Below are positions 8,245 to 56,300 of a stretch of DNA of 64,000 bases, one piece after another. The first letter of the stretch is position 1; every line of letters begins with the position of its first letter. The DNA is from Silurus meridionalis (lineage: Eukaryota; Chordata; Actinopteri; Siluriformes; Siluridae), in contig NC_060890.1 of the NCBI RefSeq assembly GCF_014805685.1, positions 23,588,000 to 23,651,999 on the forward strand. The letters are read 5' to 3'. The notes beneath the pieces were generated by a model. It was not told the origin of the DNA. It ran no database searches and worked only from the letters and a program-made list of their open reading frames with translations. Made by a program: the position numbers and the translations under genes.

Positions 8245-9300
8245 ATGAAGACAGCTGTGAAGTTCTCCAGCACTGGCAACAACATCGTCCCTGCACTCCT
8301 CATTATTTTGACTGTTTGCTGCCCAGTGGTGAGTTTCTATGTCCAGTTAAACTAACCAGAATTTTTTAATCACTAGTGTTGCACAAACATTGTTTTTTCT
8401 CCATTTTTTAATAGAAACTGTCCCGGACATCAGACTCTGGATATAAACTGGACATGGCAAAAGATTCTGTCGATGATCAATTCAAAGGCTGCGAGAATAA
8501 AATGTTCCAGCTGATTAAAGACAAGATTCTACCTAAAGAATTCAAATTTGATGTAAATTTTACTACAACTTGGAACAAATACAAGAACATTCAGAATTAT
8601 TTTAAAAGGATAATAAAAGTCTACACATCTCCTACTGGGTCTTATTCAAAGCTCAATGATGCTGTGAGCTCAGGAAGGCCAAAATATAAAACACATTTCA
8701 ATTATAAAGCCTACCATTTCTTGCTAACACGCGCCATACAAACATATCAATTAAAAAAATGCACTGATGTTTATCGTAAGACCCCCACTACTTTTGATTT
8801 AGCTGTTCGTGCTCAGGAAATGCGATTCGGCAGGTTTACCTCAACTTCGCTTAAAAATAATTTTCCTGGATTTGGTAACGCCACCTGTTTCAAGATTAAG
8901 ACCTGCTTTGGTGCAGACATATCCAGTATGTCTTCTGTGCCTTATGAGAAAGAGGTGCTAATCCCACCTTATGAAAAATTCAAAATAAAAAAAATTCAGA
9001 AAAACAAGAACAAATGTAATGTCTGTTACACGCTAGAGAGCGCTGGCAGATTTAGTAATATGAACTGTGTGCTGCAACCCAATTCACACCTGTAAGTAAA
9101 TCCACATTTCCTCAGTGCTTGGTGAAGTGACTTTAAATGTCAGAAATATTTATCAAATTTCTATCAGCTATTTGATATTTTGTGTCAACAACTTTTTAAA
9201 TGCATTTGTCCATCACAGTTTCAGCTTTTCTGCTGTAAACTTCAGCATACTCATCCTCATTTTATTGTCAATATTCGTCCTTTCTGTATCCCATAGTTGA
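8245..9300 (+). CDS. Ecto-ADP-ribosyltransferase copy A, intact, predicted GPI-anchored
   Basis: Predicted mono-ADP-ribosyltransferase of the vertebrate ART family, which transfers ADP-ribose from NAD to arginine on cell-surface or secreted proteins. Exons: 8245-8328 (start and 28 residues, signal peptide with core ALLIILTVCC), 8415-9091 (catalytic) and 9219-9300 (hydrophobic tail). Splice signals are consensus (GTGAGT/TAG and GTAAGT/CAG) and the frame stays open, giving about 280 residues. The R-S-EXE signature is present: Arg149 in DVYRKT, STS near 171-173, and E206-K-E208 just before VLIPPYE. Several Cys could form disulfides. The last exon (SILILILLSIFVLSV) is typical of a GPI-attachment signal. 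If the last intron is retained, TAA at 9093-9095 ends a 254-residue secreted form. Family assignment is firm; activity and anchoring are inferred. Confidence 0.9.
9092..9097 (+). promoter_or_regulatory. Splice donor overlapping an in-frame stop codon (copy A)
   Basis: The consensus donor GTAAGT lies at 9092-9097. Read through, the same bases give CTG TAA, so the stop of the unspliced frame is inside the donor. Splicing to 9219 removes the stop and adds 26 residues plus the shared Leu codon. Confidence 0.7.
9219..9300 (+). other. GPI-signal exon of ART copy A
   Basis: Preceded by CATCACAG (acceptor at 9217-9218; a second possible AG at 9223-9224 keeps the frame and drops two codons). Joined in phase to the catalytic exon it encodes FSFSAVNFS, then a hydrophobic run of about 15 residues, and stops with TGA at 9298-9300. 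Equivalent but decayed exons occur near 15391 and 42359. Confidence 0.7.
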
Positions 9301-9339: not shown

Positions 9340-9950
9340 AGATTTAGTTGAATTCTATGACTGCTGGCAATTTGACAGATCGCAGGTATCAACCTGAGCT
9401 AGTTTGGATGTAGCATGCTGTATTTTGAATTGATTTCTCATCAGACAATTTGTTCATCAAACATGGCTGCCTTGGACCCCATCTCTATTATAATAATGCT
9501 GTAAATAAAAAGGTAAAAAGAAAGAAGCTAACAATGTCTGAGATATTCTATAAAAAAATATATCCTGTAAATTACTTTTTGATTGTTTAAAAATAAAAAT
9601 TTGATTTGCCAACATGTGAAATGCAAATCCTGTCTGCAGTGTGGCATTTCTGCATTCTGTATTTTTTTTTTTTTTTTTTTTTGGTTTATTGATCCAAACT
9701 GTTTCTATACATTTTCCTTTATATATTTGTGTGATATTCTGTACATAATGGCTATAAAATGTTATTAGGAATTGTTTTACGAATGTTTATCCACACCGCC
9801 TTTCATTTTAACTTTGATAATGCCTTTCATATCTTTTTATTTTTTTCTAGCACTTGACAGGTAGTTTTGGTCGCTTTATTAGAAAGTTGTTTCTGTGTGT
9901 GAAACAAAATATAAGTTGTTTTACTCAATTGTTGACTTCCTGGTGACAGT
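9340..9950 (+). repeat. Conserved 3' flank of the ART unit (copy A)
   Basis: Segments such as TCAACCTGAGCTAGTTTGGA, AACATGGCTGCCTTGGACCC and TAGAAAGTTGTTTCTGTG recur downstream of the other copies (15500-15905, 42430-43130, partly 27990-28075 and 54390-54480). This marks the end of a tandemly duplicated unit. No coding function is seen. Confidence 0.75.
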
Positions 9951-11029: not shown

Positions 11030-11245
11030 TGGAGAGAAATGATGACATATGGTGGACAAAAAACAAAAGTAAAATAACAGACAACTTGAGAACAAATCAC
11101 TGACACAAAATAGATATACATGTGAAATTTGCTTATCGTGTCATTTTAACAATGAAAGCAGCCATGGAGTTTTCCCATCCGTCAGCAACATAGTTGCTGC
11201 AATCCTTAATATTTTAATTGTTTGCTACACAGTGGTGAGTTTCTT
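11030..11245 (+). pseudogene. Decayed ART signal-peptide exon (relic F1)
   Basis: Upstream text ACACAAAATAGATATACATG and AAATTTGC matches the segment before exon 2 of the other copies. An ATG at 11152 starts MKAAMEFSHP, then runs into a stop, while the downstream CAGTGGTGAGTTTC donor is still visible at about 11232. No catalytic exon follows. Confidence 0.7.
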
Positions 11246-12488: not shown

Positions 12489-13056
12489 TTACATTACACA
12501 TTACATTTATATAGCGCTTTTCTGCAGCACTCAAAGCACTTTACATATGAAAGGGGGGATTCTCCTCAACCACCACCAATGTGCAGCATCCACCTGGATG
12601 ATGCGACGGCAGCCATATTGCGCCAGATCGCCCACCACACACCAGCATATTAGTGGAGAGGAGATAGAGTGATATAGCCAATTAATATGAGGGGATAAGT
12701 AGTAGGCCAGCAGGCAAGTTTTTTTTTGTCCAGGATGCCGGGGCACACCCCTACTCATTTTTCGAAAGACATCCTGGGATTTTTTATGACCACAGAGAGT
12801 CAGGACCTTAGTTTAACGTCTCATTCGAAGGACGGTTCTTTTTTGACAGTATAGTGTCCCCGTCACTATACTGGGGTGTTAGGACCACCACAGACCACAG
12901 GGTGAGCACACCCTGCTGGTCTCACTAACACCTCTACCAGCAGCAACCTGGTTTTCCCCAGGTGGTCTCCCATCCAAGTACTGGCCAGGCTGAGCCCTGC
13001 TTAGCTTCAGTGGGCAAGTTGTCTTGGGCTACAGGGTGATATGGCTGCTGGCATAT
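12489..13056 (-). mobile_element. 5S rRNA-derived SINE (SINE3-like)
   Basis: On the minus strand the 5' end (13056 down to about 12945) is a diverged 5S rRNA. It keeps the internal promoter pieces GAAGCTAAGCAGGG and TACTTGGATGGGAGACC. A unique body follows, and the 3' end is a TGTAA-type tandem (AAATGTAATGTGTAATGTAA). This layout matches 5S-headed SINEs known from fish. It is not a functional 5S gene. Confidence 0.85.
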
Positions 13057-14265: not shown

Positions 14266-15108
14266 ATGACAGCTGTGAAGTTCTCCAGCACCGGCAACAA
14301 CATCGTCGCTGCACTTCTCATTATTTTCACTGTTTGCTGCCAAGTGGTAAGTTTTTGTCTCCATTAAAAGTGAACAGACTTTTTTAATCACTAGTTTTGC
14401 ACAAACCATGTTTTTTCTTTATTTGTTTAATAGAAACTGTCCCGGACATCAAACTCTGGATATAAACTGGACATGGCAAAAGATTCTGTCGATGATCAAT
14501 TCATAGGCTGTGAGAAAACAATGTTCTACAAGATTAAACAACAGATTCTACCTAAAGAGTTCAAATTTGATGTAGGTTTTACTACAACTTGGAACAAATA
14601 CAAGAACATTCCGGATGATTTTAAAAGGATAATAAAAGTCTACACATCCCCTTATGGGTCTTATTCAAAGCTGAATAATGCTGTGGGCTCAGGAAGGCCA
14701 AAATATAAAACACATTTCAATTATAAAGCCTACCATTTCTTGCTAACACGCGCTATACAAAAGTATCAAGTGAAGCAATGCACTAATGTTTTCCGGTGGA
14801 CCAAGGTTAATTTTGATTCAGCTTTTCGTGGTCAGCAGATGAGATTCGGCAGGTTTGCGTCAACTACACTTAAATCTAACTTGCCTGGATTTGGTACAAA
14901 GACCTGTTTTAAAATTAGAACCTGCTTTGGTGCATACATATCCAGTATGTCTGTGTTCCCTAATGAGCAAGAGGTGCTAATCCCACCTTATGAAAAATTC
15001 ATAATCACAAATGTTATGTATAACACAATGAATTGCAGGATTGTTTACACTCTACAGAGCACTGGCAAATTTAGTAATATGAACTGTGCGCTGCTGAAAA
15101 ATTATTAA
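14266..15108 (+). CDS. Ecto-ADP-ribosyltransferase copy B, intact, predicted secreted
   Basis: Paralogue of copy A with the same family role (arginine mono-ADP-ribosylation outside the cell). Exons 14266-14346 (signal peptide, 27 residues, one Lys shorter than A) and 14434-15108 give 251 residues; donor GTAAGT and acceptor TAG are consensus. The signature is complete: Arg in NVFRWT (residue 148), ASTT in place of STS with the key Ser kept, and E205-Q-E207 before VLIPPYE. The frame ends KNY-stop at 15106 with no donor at that point, and an AT-rich spacer of about 140 bp separates it from a decayed anchor exon. It is therefore expected to be soluble, like mammalian ART5. No inactivating change is visible. 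Confidence 0.9.
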
Positions 15109-15390
15109 AATATAAATAAAACACTTAAAAAAAGCTTGTTTGAAATGCTCCTTGCTAATTAGAAGAACTCTTGATTGTTGTATCATTAATATTATTATCA
15201 TTATATTTTTATCATTAGCTTTAATAATAGGTTAAAAAATATAAAATATTATATTATGTATATCCACATTTTCTCAGTGCTCTGTGAGGTGATTTTCTGT
15301 TGCTGAAATTTCTATTAATTTCTATTCAATATTAGATATATTGTATCAACAATTAACTTTTTAAAATGTATTTGTTCGTCACTTATTCAG

Positions 15391-15560
15391 CTTTTCTGAA
15401 GTCAAAGTCAACATAATCATCCTCATTTTATTGTTAAGGTCGTCCTTTTGTTTTTCCTGGTCCCAGAGAATTTTATTAATTGTAAATGTCCAAGATTCTA
15501 TGACTACTGGCCATTTTGCAGGTAGCGCATATCAACCTGAGCTGGTTTGGGTGTAGCATG
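15391..15560 (+). pseudogene. Decayed GPI-signal exon after copy B
   Basis: The acceptor ACTTATTCAG is followed by FSEVKVNIIILILLL in the frame homologous to the copy A anchor exon. The frame then runs on into polar sequence before a stop. The upstream donor of this intron has decayed to GTATAT and lies outside the coding frame of copy B. Confidence 0.6.
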
Positions 15561-15923
15561 CGGTCATTTAAACCAATTTGAGTTACAGGTGTTGAACTGA
15601 ACTCCTTCAAACATTTTGCCTTGGGTCAGCACAAGCTTACATGGAGCCTATTGTGATAATACATGTGAAACAAAAAGCTTACAATGTCTAATTCTGCAAA
15701 TTAATATTCAATTGTTTTTGTTGTATGCAAATCTTGTGGCCTTTCTGCCGTTATTGATTTATTTTTTTGTTTATTGATCTGAAATGTTTTTATAAATTTT
15801 CTTTTCATTTAAATTTCAGCTTAAAAAAGATTTAAAAAAAAGTCATTGTCTCTTTCGTCTATCATTTGACAGGCAGTTTTGGTTGCTTTATTAGAAATAA
15901 ATGTTGTCTTTGTTGTCCCCCCA

Positions 15924-15971: not shown

Positions 15972-17077
15972 CCACCTCCATGGTCTTCCTCTTTTCCTCC
16001 ATCCTGGTGGCTCCATCCTCAGCATTCTCCTACCGATATACCCCATGTCCCTCCTCTGCACATGTCCAAATCATGTCAATCTCACCTCCCTCACCTTGTC
16101 TCCAAAATGTCCTACATGTGCTGTCCCTCTAATAAACTTGTTTCTAATCCTGTCCATCCTCGTCCTTTCCAACGAAAACCTCAACATCTCATTTACATTT
16201 ACATTTACATTTACATTTGCGGCATTTAGCAGACGCCCTTATCCAGAGCGACGTACAAACGTGCTTTAAATCTCTAATAGTGAATAAATCTACACTGGTA
16301 CGCAAGAATACAAACTCAATATAAATATAACTCGAATTCTACAAACTTGGAAAGTGCTAATTTAGGTATTTCAGGAAGAGGTAGGTCTTCAGTCGTCGCT
16401 TAAAGATAATCAGGGACTCTGCTGTACGGACATCTAGGCGAAGTTCATTCCACCACCTCGTTGCCAGAACAGAGAAGAGCCTTGAATTGTACTTACCTCT
16501 CATTCTGAGAGAAGGTGGTACCAGTCGAGCAGTGCTGGAGGATCTCAGACAGCGTGGTGCAGTGCGAGATGTGATGAGGTCACTGAGGTAAGATGGTGCT
16601 GGTCCATTTTGGCCTTGTAGGCAAGCATCAGTGTTTTGAATCTGATACGTGCAGCTACTGGAAGCCAGTGAAGGAGCGCAGCAGTGGGGTGGTGTGGGAA
16701 AACTTGGGCTGATTGAACACAAGTCGTGCAGCTGCGTTTTGGATCATTTGCAGTGGACGAATAGCGTTCAGGGGAAGACCTGCCAGCAGAGAGTTGCAGT
16801 AGTCCAGTCTTGAAATGACAAGAGACTGAACAAGCAACTGGGCAGACTGTATGGACAGAAATGGTCGAATCCTTCGGATGTTATAGAGAAGAAATCGACA
16901 AGAACGAGCAACATTAGCGACACGTGGGAAAAAAGACAGTTCATTGTCCATAGTTACCCCAAGGTTACGAGCAGTGGCTGAAGGGAGAGCAGAGAGTCAT
17001 GAAGTGTTATTTGTAGATCTTGACCTGGAGATGAATCACCTGGGATGACCAGCAGTTCTGTTTTGCTGGGGTTGAGT

Positions 17078-36734: not shown

Positions 36735-36940
36735 TGGGACGAACAGCATGGAGGAACAATGGCGACATCTGGTGGACAAAAAGTAAAACAACAGACAACT
36801 TGAGCCTAGATCACCGACACAAAATATATATGCACGTGAAATTTGCTTATCGTTTCAGATTAACAATGAAAACAGACATGAAGTAAGCAACAACATCATT
36901 GCTGCACTCATGATTATTTTGATTGATTGTTTGATTGATT
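36735..36940 (+). pseudogene. Decayed ART signal-peptide exon (relic F2)
   Basis: The upstream text and GTTTCAG acceptor are conserved. The ATG at 36866 gives MKTDMK and then a stop; the later CATCATTGCTGCACTCATGA still resembles the signal-peptide core. It is followed by a TTGATTGA repeat, not by a catalytic exon. Confidence 0.7.
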
Positions 36941-41972: not shown

Positions 41973-42110
41973 GATACATATCCAGTATGTCTGTAAACCT
42001 CTAAGAGGAAGAGGTGCTAATCCCACCTTATAAAAAATTCCAAATCACAAACATAACGAAACACAAGATGTGGTGTCTTTTACACAGATTGTTTAAAATG
42101 TTTGTTTCAC
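41973..42110 (+). pseudogene. ART copy D, 3' part of the catalytic exon (broken)
   Basis: ATACATATCCAGTATGTCTG and GAGGTGCTAATCCCACCTTA correspond to the YISSMS and EVLIPPY region of copy B. Changes near 41992-42006 disrupt the frame and the first Glu of the EXE motif, and the Glu after PPY has become a stop (TAA). Confidence 0.85.
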
Positions 42111-42358
42111 CATAGAAGAATTCTTGATTGTTTTATTATTAATATTATTATCATCATTATATTATTATCATTATCTCAAATGAAGTAAGGTAAAAAATAT
42201 TAACTCTCTTTGAAAAAACTGTGAGTAAATCCACATTTCCTCAGTGCTCGCTGAAGTGACTTTCTATGTCTATCATTTTTATTACATTTCTATATTCTTT
42301 GTAATATTATGTGTCAACAATTAAGTGTTTAAAATATATTTGTCCATCACATTTTTAG

Positions 42359-42474
42359 CTTTTCTGCTGTCAACTTACTCATCCTCATTTTACTGTCAAT
42401 GTCGTCCATTGTGTTTTTTATCTTCCAGAATTTCAATATGTTCTATGACTACTGGCCATTTTGCAGGTAACAGG
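42359..42474 (+). pseudogene. GPI-signal exon of ART copy D (relic)
   Basis: After ATTTTTAG it reads FSAVNLLILILLSMSSIVFF in the same phase as the copy A anchor exon. A donor-like CTGTGAGTAAATCC is kept at about 42220. The spacer of roughly 150 bp before that donor is present, as in copies B and E. Confidence 0.7.
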
Positions 42475-43033
42475 TATTGACCTGATAGTTTGATTGTAGC
42501 ACGCGGTCATTTAAACCAACTCATATAACTGTTCTCAAGCTTTCTATTTTGACTTGAACTCCATTTCTTATTAGACACTGTGTCCTTCAAACATGGCTGC
42601 CTTGGACCCCAACTGCCAGCACATGATTGCATACAGGCTTATATTATGATGCGGTAAATATAAATGTGAAAAAAAAGGTATCAATGTATGGGTTGTTCTG
42701 TAAAAGTATATTCTGTAAATAATTTGTAACTTTTTTCAGGGTACACTGTACTTGGAGCACGCTCGCACAGGCAATTTAGCCAATTTATTTTGAGTTGCCA
42801 ACATGTGAAATGCAAATCCTGTCTGCAATGTGGCATTTCTGCACTTATTTACTGTATTTGATTTTTTATTTTTTTTTTGGTTTATTGATTCAAACTGATT
42901 CTTTACATATATTCTTTTTTTTTTTTTACATTTTTGTGTGATTATTATGTTTGTTGTGGCTTTAAAATGTTATGAGGAATTATTTTATGGATATTTATAC
43001 ACATTGTCTTTCAATTTAACTTAAAAAATATAA

Positions 43034-48021: not shown

Positions 48022-49219
48022 GTGAGTATTCTGATTACATCACAAATTACATTAATAAACTTTATAGTATCAGATTCAGTTTAATTACCTTTAAATATAT
48101 TGTTTGATATTCAAGCATTTCAAGAATTTAAAATTTAAGACAAAATTGTGCATTGTTCATGGTATAACCAGAATCACTTTGTTTGCAACACAAATTATTC
48201 ATGCTAGAAAGTGTAAGATTGTCGATTGTGAAGCTTTCAATATTCTTCATGTTGATAATAAAAAGTTCTGATTGTGCTATTTATTATATAAATAAAAAAA
48301 TGTATCAAAATATGAAATCATTAATTTGATCTAAACTGTTCTTTATTTTGAAAAAAAATTATATAAGCAGCAGCTAAAATTTGTTCTTTAATAACCAACA
48401 AAGCTTGTATATATAAACCGAAGCAAAAAAAAAACCCAACAACAAAAAACAACAATTAGTGATAACAGTATAACTTCCATAAATAATAGAAATTTAAAAC
48501 ATCTGGATATAACACACAACCAAAACACTGACAAAAAAAAATAGACATACATGTGGAATTTGCTTCTCTTTTTAGATTAAAAATGAAGACAGCCGTGAAG
48601 TTCTCCAGCCCTGGCAACAACGTTGTCACTGCACTCCTCATTATTTTGACTGTTTGCTGCCCAGTGGTGAGTTTCTATGTCCAGTTGAAGTGAACAGAAT
48701 TTTTTATCACTAGTTTTGCATAAACAATGTATTTTCCTTATTTGTTTAATCGAAACTGTACCGGACATCAGACTCTGGATATAAACTGGACATGGCACAA
48801 GATTCTGTCGATGATCAATTCACAGGCTGCGAGAATAAAATGTTCCAGCTGATTACAAAAGAGATTCTACCTAAAGAGTTCAAATATGATGCAAATTTTA
48901 CTAGAGCTTGGAACGAATACCAGAACATTCAGAATGATTTTAAAAGGATAATAAAAGTCTACACATCTCCTACTGGGTCTTATTCAAAGCTTAATGATGC
49001 TGTGGGCTCAGGAATGCCAAAATATAAAACACATTTCAATTATAAAGCCTACCATTTCTTGCTTATGTGACCGAATGAATGAGGTTCAGGTGGTGATTGA
49101 CACTCCTGACCACCAATCAGTAGCGAGCAGGCACTATTTAGAGCGGGTTGGTTTGAGCCTGGCATGCGTCACGTCCGTATCCTCCCCTTTTTCAGTTGCT
49201 ATAGTGATTTCAGGTATGT

Positions 49220-52200
49220 AACCCAGCCATTATGGATGCACAAGCCAGTGCACTCTTAGTGCCGGTCCCAAGCCCGGGTAAATGGGGAGGGTTGCGTTAG
49301 GAAGGGCATCCAGCGTAAAACGTGCCAAATCAAATATGCGGATCACAAATGAGAATTCCATACCGGATCGGTCGAGGCCCGGGTTAACAACGACCGCCAC
49401 AGGTATCGTTAGCCGACAGGGTACCGGTGGAAATTGGGCTACTGTTGGCCGAAGGAGGAGAAGGAGAGGAGGAAGATGTCTACAGAGACGGCAGGGAAAG
49501 GAGCAGTGTAGGAGAGTAGAGGTTCGGGTTGGTACTTTAAATGTTGGTACTATGACGGGTAAAGGGAGAGAGGTAGCTGATATGATGGAGAGGAGAAAAG
49601 TAGATATGCTGTGTGTTCAGGAGACCAAGTGGAAAGGGAGTAAGGCCAGGAACATTGGAGGTGGATTTAAACTGTTTTATCATGGTGTGGATGGAAAGAG
49701 AAATGGTGTAGGGGTGATTCTGAAGGAAGAGTACAGTAAGAGTGTAGTGGAGGTGAAGAGAGTTTCTGATAGGGTGATGATCGTGAAGGTGGAAGTTGAA
49801 GGATGATGATAAATGTCATCAGTGCCTATGCTCCACAAGTTGGCTGTGAGATGGAGGAGAAGGAAAGATTCTGGAGTGAATTAGATGAAGTGGTAGATGG
49901 TGTACCTAGGAAAGAACGATTGGTGATTGGGGCAGACTTTAATGGGCATGTAGGTGAAGGGAACAGAGGTGATGAGGAGGTGATGGGTAGGTATGGTTTT
50001 AAGGAGAGGAATGTGGAAGGGCAGATGGTGGTAGATTTTGCTAAAAGGATGGAAATGGCAGTGGTGAACACTTATTTTAAGAAGAAGGAGGATCATAGGG
50101 TGACGATAAGAGTGGAGGAAGGTGCACACAGGTGGACTATGTGCTATGCAGGAGATGCAACCTGAAGGAGATTGGAGACTGTAAGGTGTTGGCAGGGGAC
50201 AGTGTAGCTAGACAGCATCGGATGGTGGTCTGTAGGATGGTTTTGGAGGCGAAGAAGAAGAGGAGGAGAGTGAGGACTGAAAGAAGAATAAGATGGTGGA
50301 AACTGAAGGAGGAAGAGTGTAGTGTGAGGTTCAGGGAAGAGGTCAGACAGAGGCTCAGTGGTGTTAAGGAGGTGTTGGATGATTGGGCAACTACTGCAGG
50401 AGTGATGAGGGAGGCAGCTAGAAAAGTACTTGGTGTAACATCTGGAAATAGAAAGCAAGACAAGGAGACGTGGTGGTGGAATGAGGAAGTGCAGGAGAGC
50501 ATAAGGAGGAAGAGGTTGGCAAAACAGAAGTGGGACAGAGAGTGATGAGAAAAGTAGGCAGGAGTACAAGGAGATGCGGCAGCAGGTTAAGAGGATGTGG
50601 CGAAAGCCAAGGAAAAGGCATATGAGGAGCTGTATGAGAGGTTACTAAGGAAGGAGAAAAGGATTTGTACCGATTGGCCAGGCAGAGGGACCGAGCTGGG
50701 AAGGATGTACTGCAAGTTAGAGCAATAAAGGATGGAGAGGAAATGTGTTGACTAGTGAGGAGAGTGTGTTGAGAAGGTGGAGGGAGTATTTTGAGCAGCT
50801 GATGAATGAGGAAAATCAGAGAGAGAAGGTTGGATGATGTGGAGTTGGTGAAGCAGGATGTAGATAGGATTAGTAAGGAGGAAGTGAGAGCAGCGATTAA
50901 GAGGATGAAGAGTGGAAAGTCGGTTGGACCAGATGACATACCGTAGAAGCGTGAGATGTTTAGGAGAGATGGCAGTGGAGTTTTTGACCAGATTGTTTAA
51001 CAGGATTTTGGAAGGTGAGAAGATGCCTGAGGAATGGAGAAGAGTGTGCTGGTACCGATCTTTAAGCATAAAGGAGATGTGCAGTCTTGCAGTAACTACA
51101 GGGGAATTAAGTTGATCAGTCACACCATGAAGTTATGGGAAAGAGTAGTGGAAGCCAGGCTGAGAGAAGAGGTGACCATCTGTGAGCAACAGTATGGTTT
51201 CATGCCGAGGAAGAGCACCACAGATGCCTTATTTGCTTTGAGAATGTTGATGGAGAAGTATAGAGAAGGACAGAAGGAATTGCATTGTGTATTTGTGGAT
51301 TTAGAGAAAGCGACGACAGGGTGCCAAGAGAGGAGTTGTGGTATTGTATGAGGAAGTCAGGTGTGTCAGAGAAGTATGTGAGGGTGGTGCAGGACATGTA
51401 TGAGGACAGTGTGACGGCAGTGAAGTGTGCAGTAGGAACGACAGACTGGTTCAGGGTGAAGGTTGGACTGCATCAAGGATCGGCCCTGAGCCCTTTCCTG
51501 TTTGCAGTGGTGATGGACAGGTTGACGGACAAGGTCAGACAGGAGTCTCCCTGGACTATGATGTTTGCGGATGATATTGTGATTTGTTGTGAGAGTAGGG
51601 AGCAGGTTGAGAAGAGCCTGGAGAGGTGGAGATATGCACTGGAGAAGGGGAATGAAACTCAGTAGGAGTAAGACAGAGTACATGTGTGTGAATGAGAGGG
51701 AGGGCAGTGGAGTGGTGCGGTTGCAGGAGAAGAGCTGGAGAAGGTGGAGGAATTCAGGTACCTGGGGTCAACAGTGCAAAGTAATGGAGAGTGTGTTAGA
51801 AGTGAAGAAAAGAGTGCAGGCAGGGTGGAGTGGGTGGAGAAGAGTGACAGGAGTGATTTGTGATAGTAGGGTATCTGCAAAATGAAAGGAAAGTTTATAG
51901 GACTGTGGTGAGACCTGCGATGTTGTATGGATTAGAGACAGTGGCATTGAGTAAAAGACAGGAGGTGGAGCTGGAGGTAGCAGAGCTGAAGATGTTGAGG
52001 TTTTCGTTGGGAGTGACGAGGATGGATAAGATTAGAAATGAGTTTATTAGAGGACAGCGCATGTAGGATGTTTTGGTGACAAGGTGAGGGAGGCGAGATT
52101 GAGATGGTTTGGACATGTGCAGAGGAGGGACATGAATTATATTGGTAGAAGAATGCTGAGGATGGAGCCACCAGGTAGGAGGAAAAGAGGAAGGCCAAGG

Positions 52201-52339
52201 AGGAGGTTCATGGATGTGGTGAGGGAAGACATGCAGGTAGTTGGTGTAAAAGAGGCAGATGTAGAGGACAGGGTGGTATGGAGACAGATGATCCGCTGTG
52301 GCGACCCCTAATGGGAGCAGCCGAAAGAAGAAGAAGAAG
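49220..52339 (+). mobile_element. RTE-clade LINE, full length, nested in the LTR
   Basis: Exact 19-bp target duplication ATAGTGATTTCAGGTATGT at 49201-49219 and 52340-52358. The 3120 bp carry a 5' UTR, endonuclease motifs (VRVGTLNVGTMTG, CVQETKWKGS and IGADFNGHVG), a pre-RT part, RT motifs (YGFMPRKSTTDALFALRMLM, GLHQGSALSPFLFAVVMD and MMFADDIVICCES) and a C-terminal GHVQRRDMNYIGRRML...RCGDP tail, ending in an AGAAGAAG repeat. The coding region is interrupted by frameshifts (near 49803, 50160, 50545, 50940, 51315, 51660 and 52065), so this copy is inactive despite its clean ends. Confidence 0.92.
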
Positions 52340-53246
52340 ATAGTGATTTCAGGTATGTGCTGCTAGTATGTAGCGTTGGCTAATTAGTTTTTCTTTGCTC
52401 GTTGCACTAATGGCTCGTTTGTGTATCCTTAGCCTGTCTTTTCAGTGTGTGTCCCTGCTGGATGCTGTTTTGGATCTGTTTACTGCCCTCCCTGCAGGTA
52501 TGAGGAAGTTGTTTAGTAATGTTTAGCTTTAATGCGGGTCAGGTGGCGTGAGTAATGTGCAGTCCTTGAACTTCAGTTTAACAGCAGGTTATTTGAAGGC
52601 TGCGTATCCTGAGCGGTGAATTGATTCTCAGGAACTTATCTATCCGCGTTTGGTAAGTTGTTTCGGTTTGTTAGGGGGAATTACAGCTTGTAGTTGTGCA
52701 ATTACTTGTATCATTTATATCCTGTATTATCGTTTGTATTATAGGATCCTCCCTTTTCCGTCCTGGGTGATTATTGCTGCGATTCGACTTTTCCCTCGCT
52801 GCGAGCCGAGTGAACAACCTCGGCTTACAACTATTTAAAAGGGGAATTCTGCTGCTGCCGTTTGGCTTTTGTGATTTGTTTTAACCGGTATTGTCTGGTC
52901 TACTGTGGGGTCGAGCAACGTGCAAGTATCGGGGCTGGCTTAAGGACGACGCGGCCACTCCTTTTGAGTTTTGCTTCCCTCAAACTTTTAATAAAGTTTT
53001 TCATTGTTTTTCTTTTAAGCGGTGTATATGGTAAATCATATTGTGCTTTGGTGACCATCCATCATATTATGATGGAATTGTGACCTTAATTCGCTTTTTC
53101 CTTCATCTTTGTCTGAGATTTATTTTGCTTTTGGTTTCTTTCAGGAGCTGGGGTCCCACGGGTGAAAGGTCTTTGGTGGTGCTATTTCTACATTTGCCGT
53201 GCGACACTTTTGACGTGTATGAGTGGGTGCTCTGAGTTCACGGTGA

Positions 53247-53247
53247 G

Positions 53248-53324
<77 letters not shown>

Positions 53325-53350
53325 GAAGTGTGTGTGTGTGTGTGGGGAAG
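53247..53350. repeat. (GT)n microsatellite
   Basis: GT run with two GGGGAA interruptions, inside the LTR. Confidence 0.95.
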
Positions 53351-54389
53351 TGTGCTTTTGATAATTAGTGCTGATCACTCTGGTGGGTAACCCCAGCCCT
53401 GTATTTAATGATTCTATTGTTTTGTTTATTTGGAAATTGTGTAAATTGGTTGTTTAATATTTTGTGTCTGTTTATTTTTGTTATTTGTGTAATTGTCACC
53501 GGACCGTATTCACCAGCGAGAACATTTTCTTTTTGTTTATTTTTAAAGTTTTCAATAAACTCAATAAAATAAATTTTTTATACGATGCCCACGTTTCCTG
53601 CCTACACTCATTAATAAGGGAATCGAACTTGTGTGATCTAATAAACTCTGGGGTTTACTTCTATTTCCTGGGTATAACCCTCCCAGGTGGCGTAGTCGAC
53701 TTGGTTAAGTATATAAAGTGGAGCTTGGGTGTGACGAGCCGTTCGGCTCTTGCCCCTAGGACCCCACATCCCTCGTGCCACACTTACACGCGCCATACAA
53801 ACATATCAATTGAAGAACTGCACTGATGTTTCCCGTTCGACCACCGTTAATTTTGATTCAGCTAAGCCTGGTCAGCAGATGAGATTTGGCAGGTTTGCAT
53901 CAACTACACTTAAATCTAACTTGCTTGGATTTAGTACAAGCACCTGTTTTAAGATTAGGACCTGCTTTGGTGCATACATATCCAGTATGTCTGTGTTCCC
54001 TAATGAGGAAGAGGTAATCCCACCTTATGAAAAAGTCGAAATCACAAATGTTATGTATAACACAACGAATTGCAGGATCGTTTACATTCTAAAGAGCAGT
54101 GGCAAATTTAGTAATATGAAGTGTGCGCTGCTAAAAAAAAGATTTTTTAAATAAAACGCACAGCTTGTTTGAAATGCTCCTTGCAAATTAAAAAGAACTC
54201 TTGTTGTTGTAGCTTTAATATTATCATTATACTATTATTATTCGATTTAATGAAGTTAGTTTAAAAATATAAAATATTAAACCTCTACTTATCAACTGTG
54301 AGTAAAGAAAAAAAATTCTTTCAATTTCTATTCATTTATATATTTTTATATCAACAATTAACTTTTCAAAATGTATTTGTCCATCATTT

Positions 54390-56076: not shown

Positions 56077-56300
56077 CATCCTGGTGGTCTAGTGGTTAGG
56101 ATGCGGCGCTCTCACCGCTGTAACCCGGGTTCGATCCCTGGTCAGGGAACCAACCCCAGCCACTTTCAGTGCCGGTCCCAAGCCTGGATAAATTGGGAGG
56201 GTTGTGTTAGGAAGGGCATCCAGCATAAAAACATGTGCCAAATCTAACATGCAGAGGATCCGCTGTGGCGCCCCCTAACGGGAGAAGCCGAAAGAAAGTT
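56077..56300 (+). mobile_element. SINE with a tRNA-Glu head joined to RTE LINE ends
   Basis: The head (56077-56153) is a nearly complete tRNA-Glu: A box TGGTCTAGTGG, anticodon loop with CTC, B box GGTTCGATCCC, and TCAGGGA at the acceptor end followed by A and CCA. The body GTGCCGGTCCCAAGCC matches the RTE 5' UTR at 49260, and the end GATCCGCTGTGGCGCCCCCT plus GAAAGAAAG matches the RTE 3' end. Acceptor-stem mismatches at the first positions argue against a working tRNA gene. Confidence 0.85.

What the first reader, a model, noticed from the sequence alone, without database searches (positions are those of the whole stretch)
9085..9300. A stop codon sits inside a splice donor, so copy A may make both secreted and GPI-anchored enzyme
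The catalytic frame ends CTG TAA, and the same bases form a consensus GTAAGT donor. Splicing to 9219 keeps phase and adds a hydrophobic tail typical of GPI signals. Intron retention would give a soluble protein, splicing an anchored one, a one-site switch for enzyme location.
Basis: partly seen in the sequence, partly recalled or inferred. Interest (0 to 1): 0.75.

Follow-up and report, generated by a model that had tools for sequence, protein, structure and literature searches.

The report
Catfish ADP-ribosyltransferase with donor-like stop codon
A catfish gene for an enzyme that tags proteins with ADP-ribose ends in a stop codon that also looks like a splice site, but this overlap is automatic for many introns, and relatives suggest the enzyme is simply secreted.

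Summary
The anatomy is real. Copy A is an ecto-ADP-ribosyltransferase (ART) gene of a Silurus catfish. Its catalytic frame ends CTG TAA (9090-9095) inside the donor-like CT|GTAAGT. Joining 9091 to 9219 (or 9225) keeps phase and adds a hydrophobic, GPI-signal-like tail ending at 9300.

The headline coincidence is automatic: a phase-2 intron with GTAAGT or GTGAGT reads TAA or TGA at its start, a published point. It is no evidence of a switch.

Comparison leans against the spliced form. None of 33 non-partial siluriform relatives listed has a hydrophobic tail. A Silurus asotus relative ends at the same ...VLQPNSHL. Copy B, identical to a S. meridionalis database protein, stops inside exon 2. Copies B, C and E carry about 150 nt that A lacks between catalytic end and donor homologue, so A's link to the donor is probably a later deletion. 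The tail region is no more conserved than its flanks. Against this, the tail is rarely matched by chance in the window.

I judge soluble-only most likely (0.5), constitutive splicing to a GPI form next (0.3), a regulated dual product 0.12. No RNA was available; junction reads would settle it. Interest is low.

The parts
8245..8328 (+). copy A exon 1: start codon and hydrophobic signal-peptide-like leader; intron 1 follows in phase 0
   Evidence: GTGAGT donor at 8329, acceptor TTTTTTAATAG before 8415
8415..9091 (+). copy A exon 2: ART catalytic domain with R-S-EXE (R149; STS at 171-173; E206-K-E208 in the 280-aa numbering)
   Evidence: Pfam PF01129 1.5e-40; rat ART2 alignment E 1e-21; motif positions
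9093..9095 (+). in-frame TAA stop if the exon is read on
9092..9097 (+). donor-like GTAAGT overlapping the stop; U1 duplex -7.0 kcal/mol, 158 of 3845 plus-strand GTs as good or better; intron 1 donors of A and B give -9.2 and -9.1
9092..9218 (+). candidate 127-nt intron 2, phase 2; no AATAAA or ATTAAA inside
9217..9224 (+). two tandem candidate acceptors, AG 9217-9218 (not in B, C, E) and AG 9223-9224 (kept in A, B, E); both in frame
9219..9300 (+). candidate exon 3: hydrophobic GPI-signal-like tail (L)FSFSAVNFSILILILLSIFVLSVSHS and TGA
9504..9509 (+). AATAAA poly(A)-signal-like site that could serve either isoform
14266..15108 (+). copy B, two coding exons (14266-14346, 14434-15108 with its stop), stop inside exon 2, AATAAA at 15115; 251-aa product identical to P0003 (S. 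meridionalis)
15255..15569 (+). copy B homologue of A intron 2, tail and 3' flank: donor lost (TATGTATAT), first AG lost, frame shifted relative to A
41976..42896 (+). copy E, broken ART remnant whose donor homologue reads CTGTGAGT at 42219-42226; second AG kept, 6-nt and 1-nt length differences from A in the tail

Best explanation
Copy A encodes a small secreted arginine-type ecto-ADP-ribosyltransferase, and the TAA at 9093-9095 is its ordinary stop codon. The ancestral gene of this Silurus cluster already stopped just after the last conserved cysteine (...NCALLK...). In the A lineage a deletion of about 150 nt removed that stop and placed the exon 2 end next to an older donor-like CTGTAAGT, so the frame now runs eight residues past the cysteine (VLQPNSHL) and stops in it. 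The hydrophobic frame downstream is then a decayed or never-used tail. Shown: gene anatomy, catalytic residues, the sibling comparison, tail-less relatives. Inferred: the deletion, that the donor is little used, and that the product is secreted.
For: 0 of 33 non-partial siluriform relatives among the 120 listed (of 342 found) have a hydrophobic C-terminus, while tailed fish ARTs are annotated elsewhere (15 of the other 79; 41 of 120 in the list for zebrafish ART4). P0002 of S. asotus ends exactly ...MNCVLQPNSHL. Copy B equals P0003 and stops in exon 2. B, C and E share a segment of about 150 nt (B-C 112 of 147, B-E 99 of 127, C-E 87 of 125 aligned bases alike, gaps left out) that A lacks, although in most of the flank A is closest to E (intron 105/128 against 95/127 for A-B and 98/133 for B-E): a deletion in A is the simplest account. 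Exon 3 is no more conserved than its flanks: A-E 58/70 in exon 3, 105/128 in the intron, 226/276 beyond 9420. Inside the tail A carries one base more than B and E. A search with residues 241-280 found 3 candidates and none at E 10 or below. The tract before 9219 is weak: 10 of 17 pyrimidines against 14 of 17 before exon 2.
Against: The tail is strongly hydrophobic and in phase; 0 of 61 control donors give one as strong. The donor is in the best 4% or so of plus-strand GTs. An AATAAA lies beyond exon 3 at 9504. The A-E kinship that makes a deletion the simpler account is not uniform: the stretch just after exon 3 puts B with E (56/70 against 60/84 for A-E), and the small catalytic piece left in E is equally like A and B (73/97, 74/98); the cluster shows signs of exchange between copies. 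Relatives' C-termini are database gene models and may miss a small last exon. No RNA was seen.
Confidence: 0.5

Rival explanations
1. Copy A is an ordinary three-coding-exon, GPI-anchored ART. Intron 2 is normally removed, exon 3 supplies the GPI signal, and the stop in the donor is only the usual by-product of a phase-2 GTAAGT donor.
For: Hydrophobic tail in phase, with three candidate omega sites by a recalled rule; good donor; a GPI signal in a separate third coding exon is the ART4 plan (PMC2576468, abstract and passages).
Against: ART4 introns are phase 0 and 1, here 0 and 2; no tail in 0 of 33 listed siluriform relatives; tail not conserved over flanks; similarity to 23 cyprinid tails is inconclusive (p 0.07 and 0.02 against full shuffles, 0.31 and 0.13 against split shuffles, for the 9219 and 9225 acceptors).
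Confidence: 0.3
2. One reading: both forms are made, intron retention giving the secreted and splicing the GPI-anchored enzyme, in regulated proportions.
For: Retention in the last intron leaves no downstream junction, so the retained form should escape nonsense-mediated decay (general knowledge). No poly(A) signal lies in the intron, so retention, not intronic polyadenylation, would make the soluble form. Intermediate donor, weak acceptor tract and tandem AGs would allow inefficient splicing. In chicken ART4 a database model without exon 3 was suggested to be a splice variant (PMC2576468).
Against: No transcript evidence; all the evidence against a used exon 3 counts here too; the stop-donor overlap itself carries no weight because it is automatic.
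Confidence: 0.12
3. Copy A is a young, barely expressed or decaying duplicate in a fast-turnover cluster, and neither form matters.
For: Several sibling copies are broken (C split by about 4.7 kb, D and E fragments). A-B exon 2 dN/dS is 0.71. No protein identical to copy A is among the 120 listed.
Against: Intact frame, R-S-EXE kept, and a S. asotus protein, P0001, 95% identical over 78% of it.
Confidence: 0.08

Closest known systems
Vertebrate ecto-ADP-ribosyltransferases (ARTC; Pfam PF01129), rat ART2 1gxy
   Same: one exon for the whole catalytic domain after a leader exon; R-S-EXE; cysteines aligned with rat ART2
   Different: tandem copies in a catfish; C-terminal state uncertain
Chicken ART4 (PMC2576468; abstract and passages seen)
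   Same: three coding exons with the GPI signal in exon 3; a database model lacking exon 3 ends just past the exon 2/intron 2 junction and was suggested to be a splice variant
   Different: chicken intron 2 is phase 1 and surface protein was reduced by PI-PLC; here intron 2 would be phase 2 and nothing is shown
Phase-2 introns with GTGAGT/GTAAGT donors (Yarrowia survey, PMC2911113, passages)
   Same: the donor itself reads as an in-frame stop if the intron is retained, whatever its length
   Different: there the consequence discussed is decay of retained transcripts; here the intron would be the last one
Uromodulin exon 10 skipping (PMC12165797, passages) and CD55/DAF intron retention (recalled, no call)
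   Same: alternative splicing removes a GPI signal and changes protein location
   Different: other genes; exon skipping in uromodulin; RNA evidence exists there (seen for uromodulin, recalled for CD55)

Membership tests
ecto-ADP-ribosyltransferase (ARTC, PF01129) | ART domain | tested here: met
   PF01129 E 1.5e-40, 139.4 bits against a cut-off of 22.3
ecto-ADP-ribosyltransferase (ARTC, PF01129) | R-S-EXE motif of arginine-specific members | tested here: met
   VYRKT at 147, FTSTS at 169, EKEVL at 206, aligned to rat ART2
ecto-ADP-ribosyltransferase (ARTC, PF01129) | enzyme activity | not testable with these tools
   needs an assay
GPI-anchored ART subclass | C-terminal hydrophobic GPI signal in the mature mRNA | tested here: inconclusive
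   present only if 9091 is joined to 9219 or 9225; no transcript seen; 0 of 33 listed siluriform relatives tailed
[quoted passage not shown]
   phases 0 and 2 against 0 and 1 in ART4
intron-retention location switch | both retained and spliced transcripts present | not testable with these tools

The most novel reading that the evidence does not exclude
A small deletion in one catfish ART copy fused a soluble enzyme's reading frame to a pre-existing donor-like site and hydrophobic downstream frame. It thereby created, from scratch or from a fossil exon, a gene whose stop codon and splice donor are the same bases and which makes both secreted and GPI-anchored enzyme: a localisation switch at its birth, with siblings B, C and E showing the state before.
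Probability: 0.1. Interest if true: 0.5.

Novelty: new member of a known kind. Interest (0 to 1): 0.2.

Why it matters
Where an ecto-ART sits decides which proteins it can modify, and catfish carry many copies. If copy A did splice to a GPI form, the cluster would show step by step how an anchored enzyme arises from a soluble one. As it stands, the main lesson is cautionary: a stop codon inside a phase-2 donor is expected and is not by itself a sign of regulation.

Tried and rejected
Own-genome search for ART copies was asked six times in the same form and never answered, so copies beyond the window were not counted. A search for relatives of the tail gave none. Similarity of copy A's tail to 23 tailed cyprinid proteins, chosen by me from the two lists, is inconclusive. 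A list seeded with zebrafish ART4 (120 of 454 shown) held no row that I could read as siluriform, so it served only as a control that tailed models exist in other fish. Pfam on the insert that splits copy C found no family at E 0.01 in three plus-strand stretches read in one frame (other frames and the minus strand not tried). Rfam at gathering scores found three matches in the window, none in the finding. Papers, judged from the listed rows only: searches (splicing or retention with GPI and soluble forms; ecto-ARTs; catfish ARTs; 10 of 837 rows listed) showed none on this gene. Passages were seen in PMC2575215 (no use for the C-terminus) and PMC5946108 (trout Art2a expression only). A paper asked for by DOI was not held. 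Rejected: intronic polyadenylation as the way to a soluble form (the first AATAAA/ATTAAA after 9092 is at 9504); and the stop-donor overlap as evidence of design.

Full report
What is there. The window comes from a Silurus catfish: the spliced product of copy B is identical over 251 aa to P0003, named as a Silurus meridionalis protein, which suggests that species or a near relative. Copy A has a leader exon (8245-8328), a phase-0 intron, and a single exon (8415 on) holding the whole ART domain (PF01129 1.5e-40; rat ART2 1e-21) with R-S-EXE intact. The frame ends CTG TAA at 9090-9095 and the same bases form CT|GTAAGT; joining 9091 to 9219 keeps phase and gives 280 aa with a hydrophobic end.

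Why the overlap is ordinary. In a phase-2 intron the last codon before the break reads NN|G and the next triplet is bases 2-4 of the intron. With GTAAGT that is TAA, with GTGAGT it is TGA. Every such intron shows a stop at its start when retained. This is in print: in Yarrowia the GTGAGT motif makes an in-frame stop in phase-2 introns whatever their size, and GTAAGT likewise (PMC2911113, passages). The homologous site in copy E reads CTGTGAGT, again both stop-like and donor-like. The overlap carries no information about a switch.

Is the tail more than chance? 70 GTRAGT sites lie in the window on both strands; 61 remain after masking the ART copies. Read in phase 2 with any YAG 60-400 nt on that has at least 8 of 15 pyrimidines, 4 of 61 give a GPI-like tail at mean hydropathy 2.0, 1 at 2.5 and none at 2.8 or 3.0; with only the first eligible acceptor none does at any of these thresholds. 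Copy A scores 3.3. Over all 1606 such YAGs in the window, 21 (1.3%) pass at 2.5, and that count includes copy A's own. So the tail is unusual. It could be a used exon, a fossil, or a lucky T-rich stretch.

Which acceptor.

What the siblings show. The window holds copies or pieces at 14.3, 31.2, 42.0 and 48.6 with 53.8 kb, and exon-1-like pieces at 11.1 and 36.8 kb. In B and C the catalytic exon ends ...NCALLKNY* and ...KCALLKKRFFK*, with an AATAAA at or just after the stop and about 150 nt or more before the region homologous to A's intron 2; E keeps that segment too, but its catalytic end is damaged. A lacks the segment. In most of the downstream flank A is closest to E (aligned bases alike, gaps left out: intron 105 of 128, exon 3 58 of 70, beyond 9420 226 of 276), with B further from both (A-B 95/127, 54/77, 131/195; B-E 98/133, 51/70, 152/224). 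Two results do not fit: just after exon 3 B and E are closest (B-E 56/70, A-E 60/84, A-B 72/102), and the small catalytic piece left in E is equally like A, B and C (73/97, 74/98, 67/91). A deletion in A remains simpler than separate insertions, though exchange between copies could mislead. If so, the reading frame met this donor only after the copies split. The exon 3 region is no better kept than its flanks, and inside it A has one base more than B and E.

What relatives show. Of 342 relatives found, 120 were listed. I read 41 of these as siluriform; 8 labelled partial were set aside; 0 of the other 33 has a hydrophobic C-terminus (best 14-residue mean 1.19, in P0036, whose model ends early). 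15 of the other 79 do, as do 41 of the 120 listed for zebrafish ART4, so tailed models are annotated in other fish. P0002 of S. asotus ends ...MNCVLQPNSHL like unspliced copy A. No protein with copy A's tail was found. These are database gene models whose RNA support I could not see, and 222 of the 342 hits were not shown.

Splice-site strength. Duplex energy with U1 is -7.0 kcal/mol for copy A's donor (158 of 3845 plus-strand GTs as good or better), -7.1 for E's homologue, -9.2 and -9.1 for the intron 1 donors of A and B; B's homologue gives -1.9. The tract before 9219 has 10 of 17 pyrimidines, before 9225 12 of 17, before exon 2 of A 14 of 17 and of B 13 of 17. The site is usable but second-rate.

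Precedent. In chicken ART4 the GPI signal lies in the third coding exon after introns in phase 0 and 1, and a database model without exon 3 was noted as a possible splice variant (PMC2576468, abstract and passages). Chicken has both soluble and GPI-anchored ARTs (same paper). Uromodulin loses its GPI site by exon skipping (PMC12165797, passages). Intron retention giving soluble CD55 is recalled, from no call. A splice-controlled GPI anchor would therefore be a new case of a known kind.

Verdict. Anatomy confirmed; the switch is unproven and its headline clue is automatic. I favour an ordinary secreted ART (0.5) over a spliced GPI-anchored one (0.3), a regulated dual product (0.12) or an irrelevant young copy (0.08). 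RNA reads would decide at once.

Noticed in passing
48753-54131: Copy C's catalytic exon is split by about 4.7 kb; the two matches meet at residue 132 of copy A. The region has strong G-over-C skew (0.42 over 48-52 kb) and a GT repeat at 53250-53344; three plus-strand stretches read in one frame matched no Pfam family.
   Followed up: partly
48753-54131 against 8415-9092 and 14434-15095: Copy C looks mosaic: its 5' half of exon 2 is nearest A (292 of 310 bases; B 280 of 310) and its 3' half nearest B (313 of 348; A 273 of 348), which suggests gene conversion or unequal exchange in the cluster.
   Followed up: partly
12935-13052 (-), 16216-16269 (-), 56078-56149 (+): Rfam matches: a 5S rRNA-like sequence, a UnaL2 LINE 3' element and a tRNA-like sequence; they may be repeats rather than genes.
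   Followed up: no
11093-11244 and 36812-36929: Isolated exon-1-like pieces of the ART gene; one search showed no catalytic-exon match close beside them.
   Followed up: no
14434-15107 and 8415-9091: Exon 2 of A and B differ with dN 0.163 and dS 0.230 (ratio 0.71), high for an enzyme with intact catalytic residues; relaxed or diversifying change is possible.
   Followed up: partly
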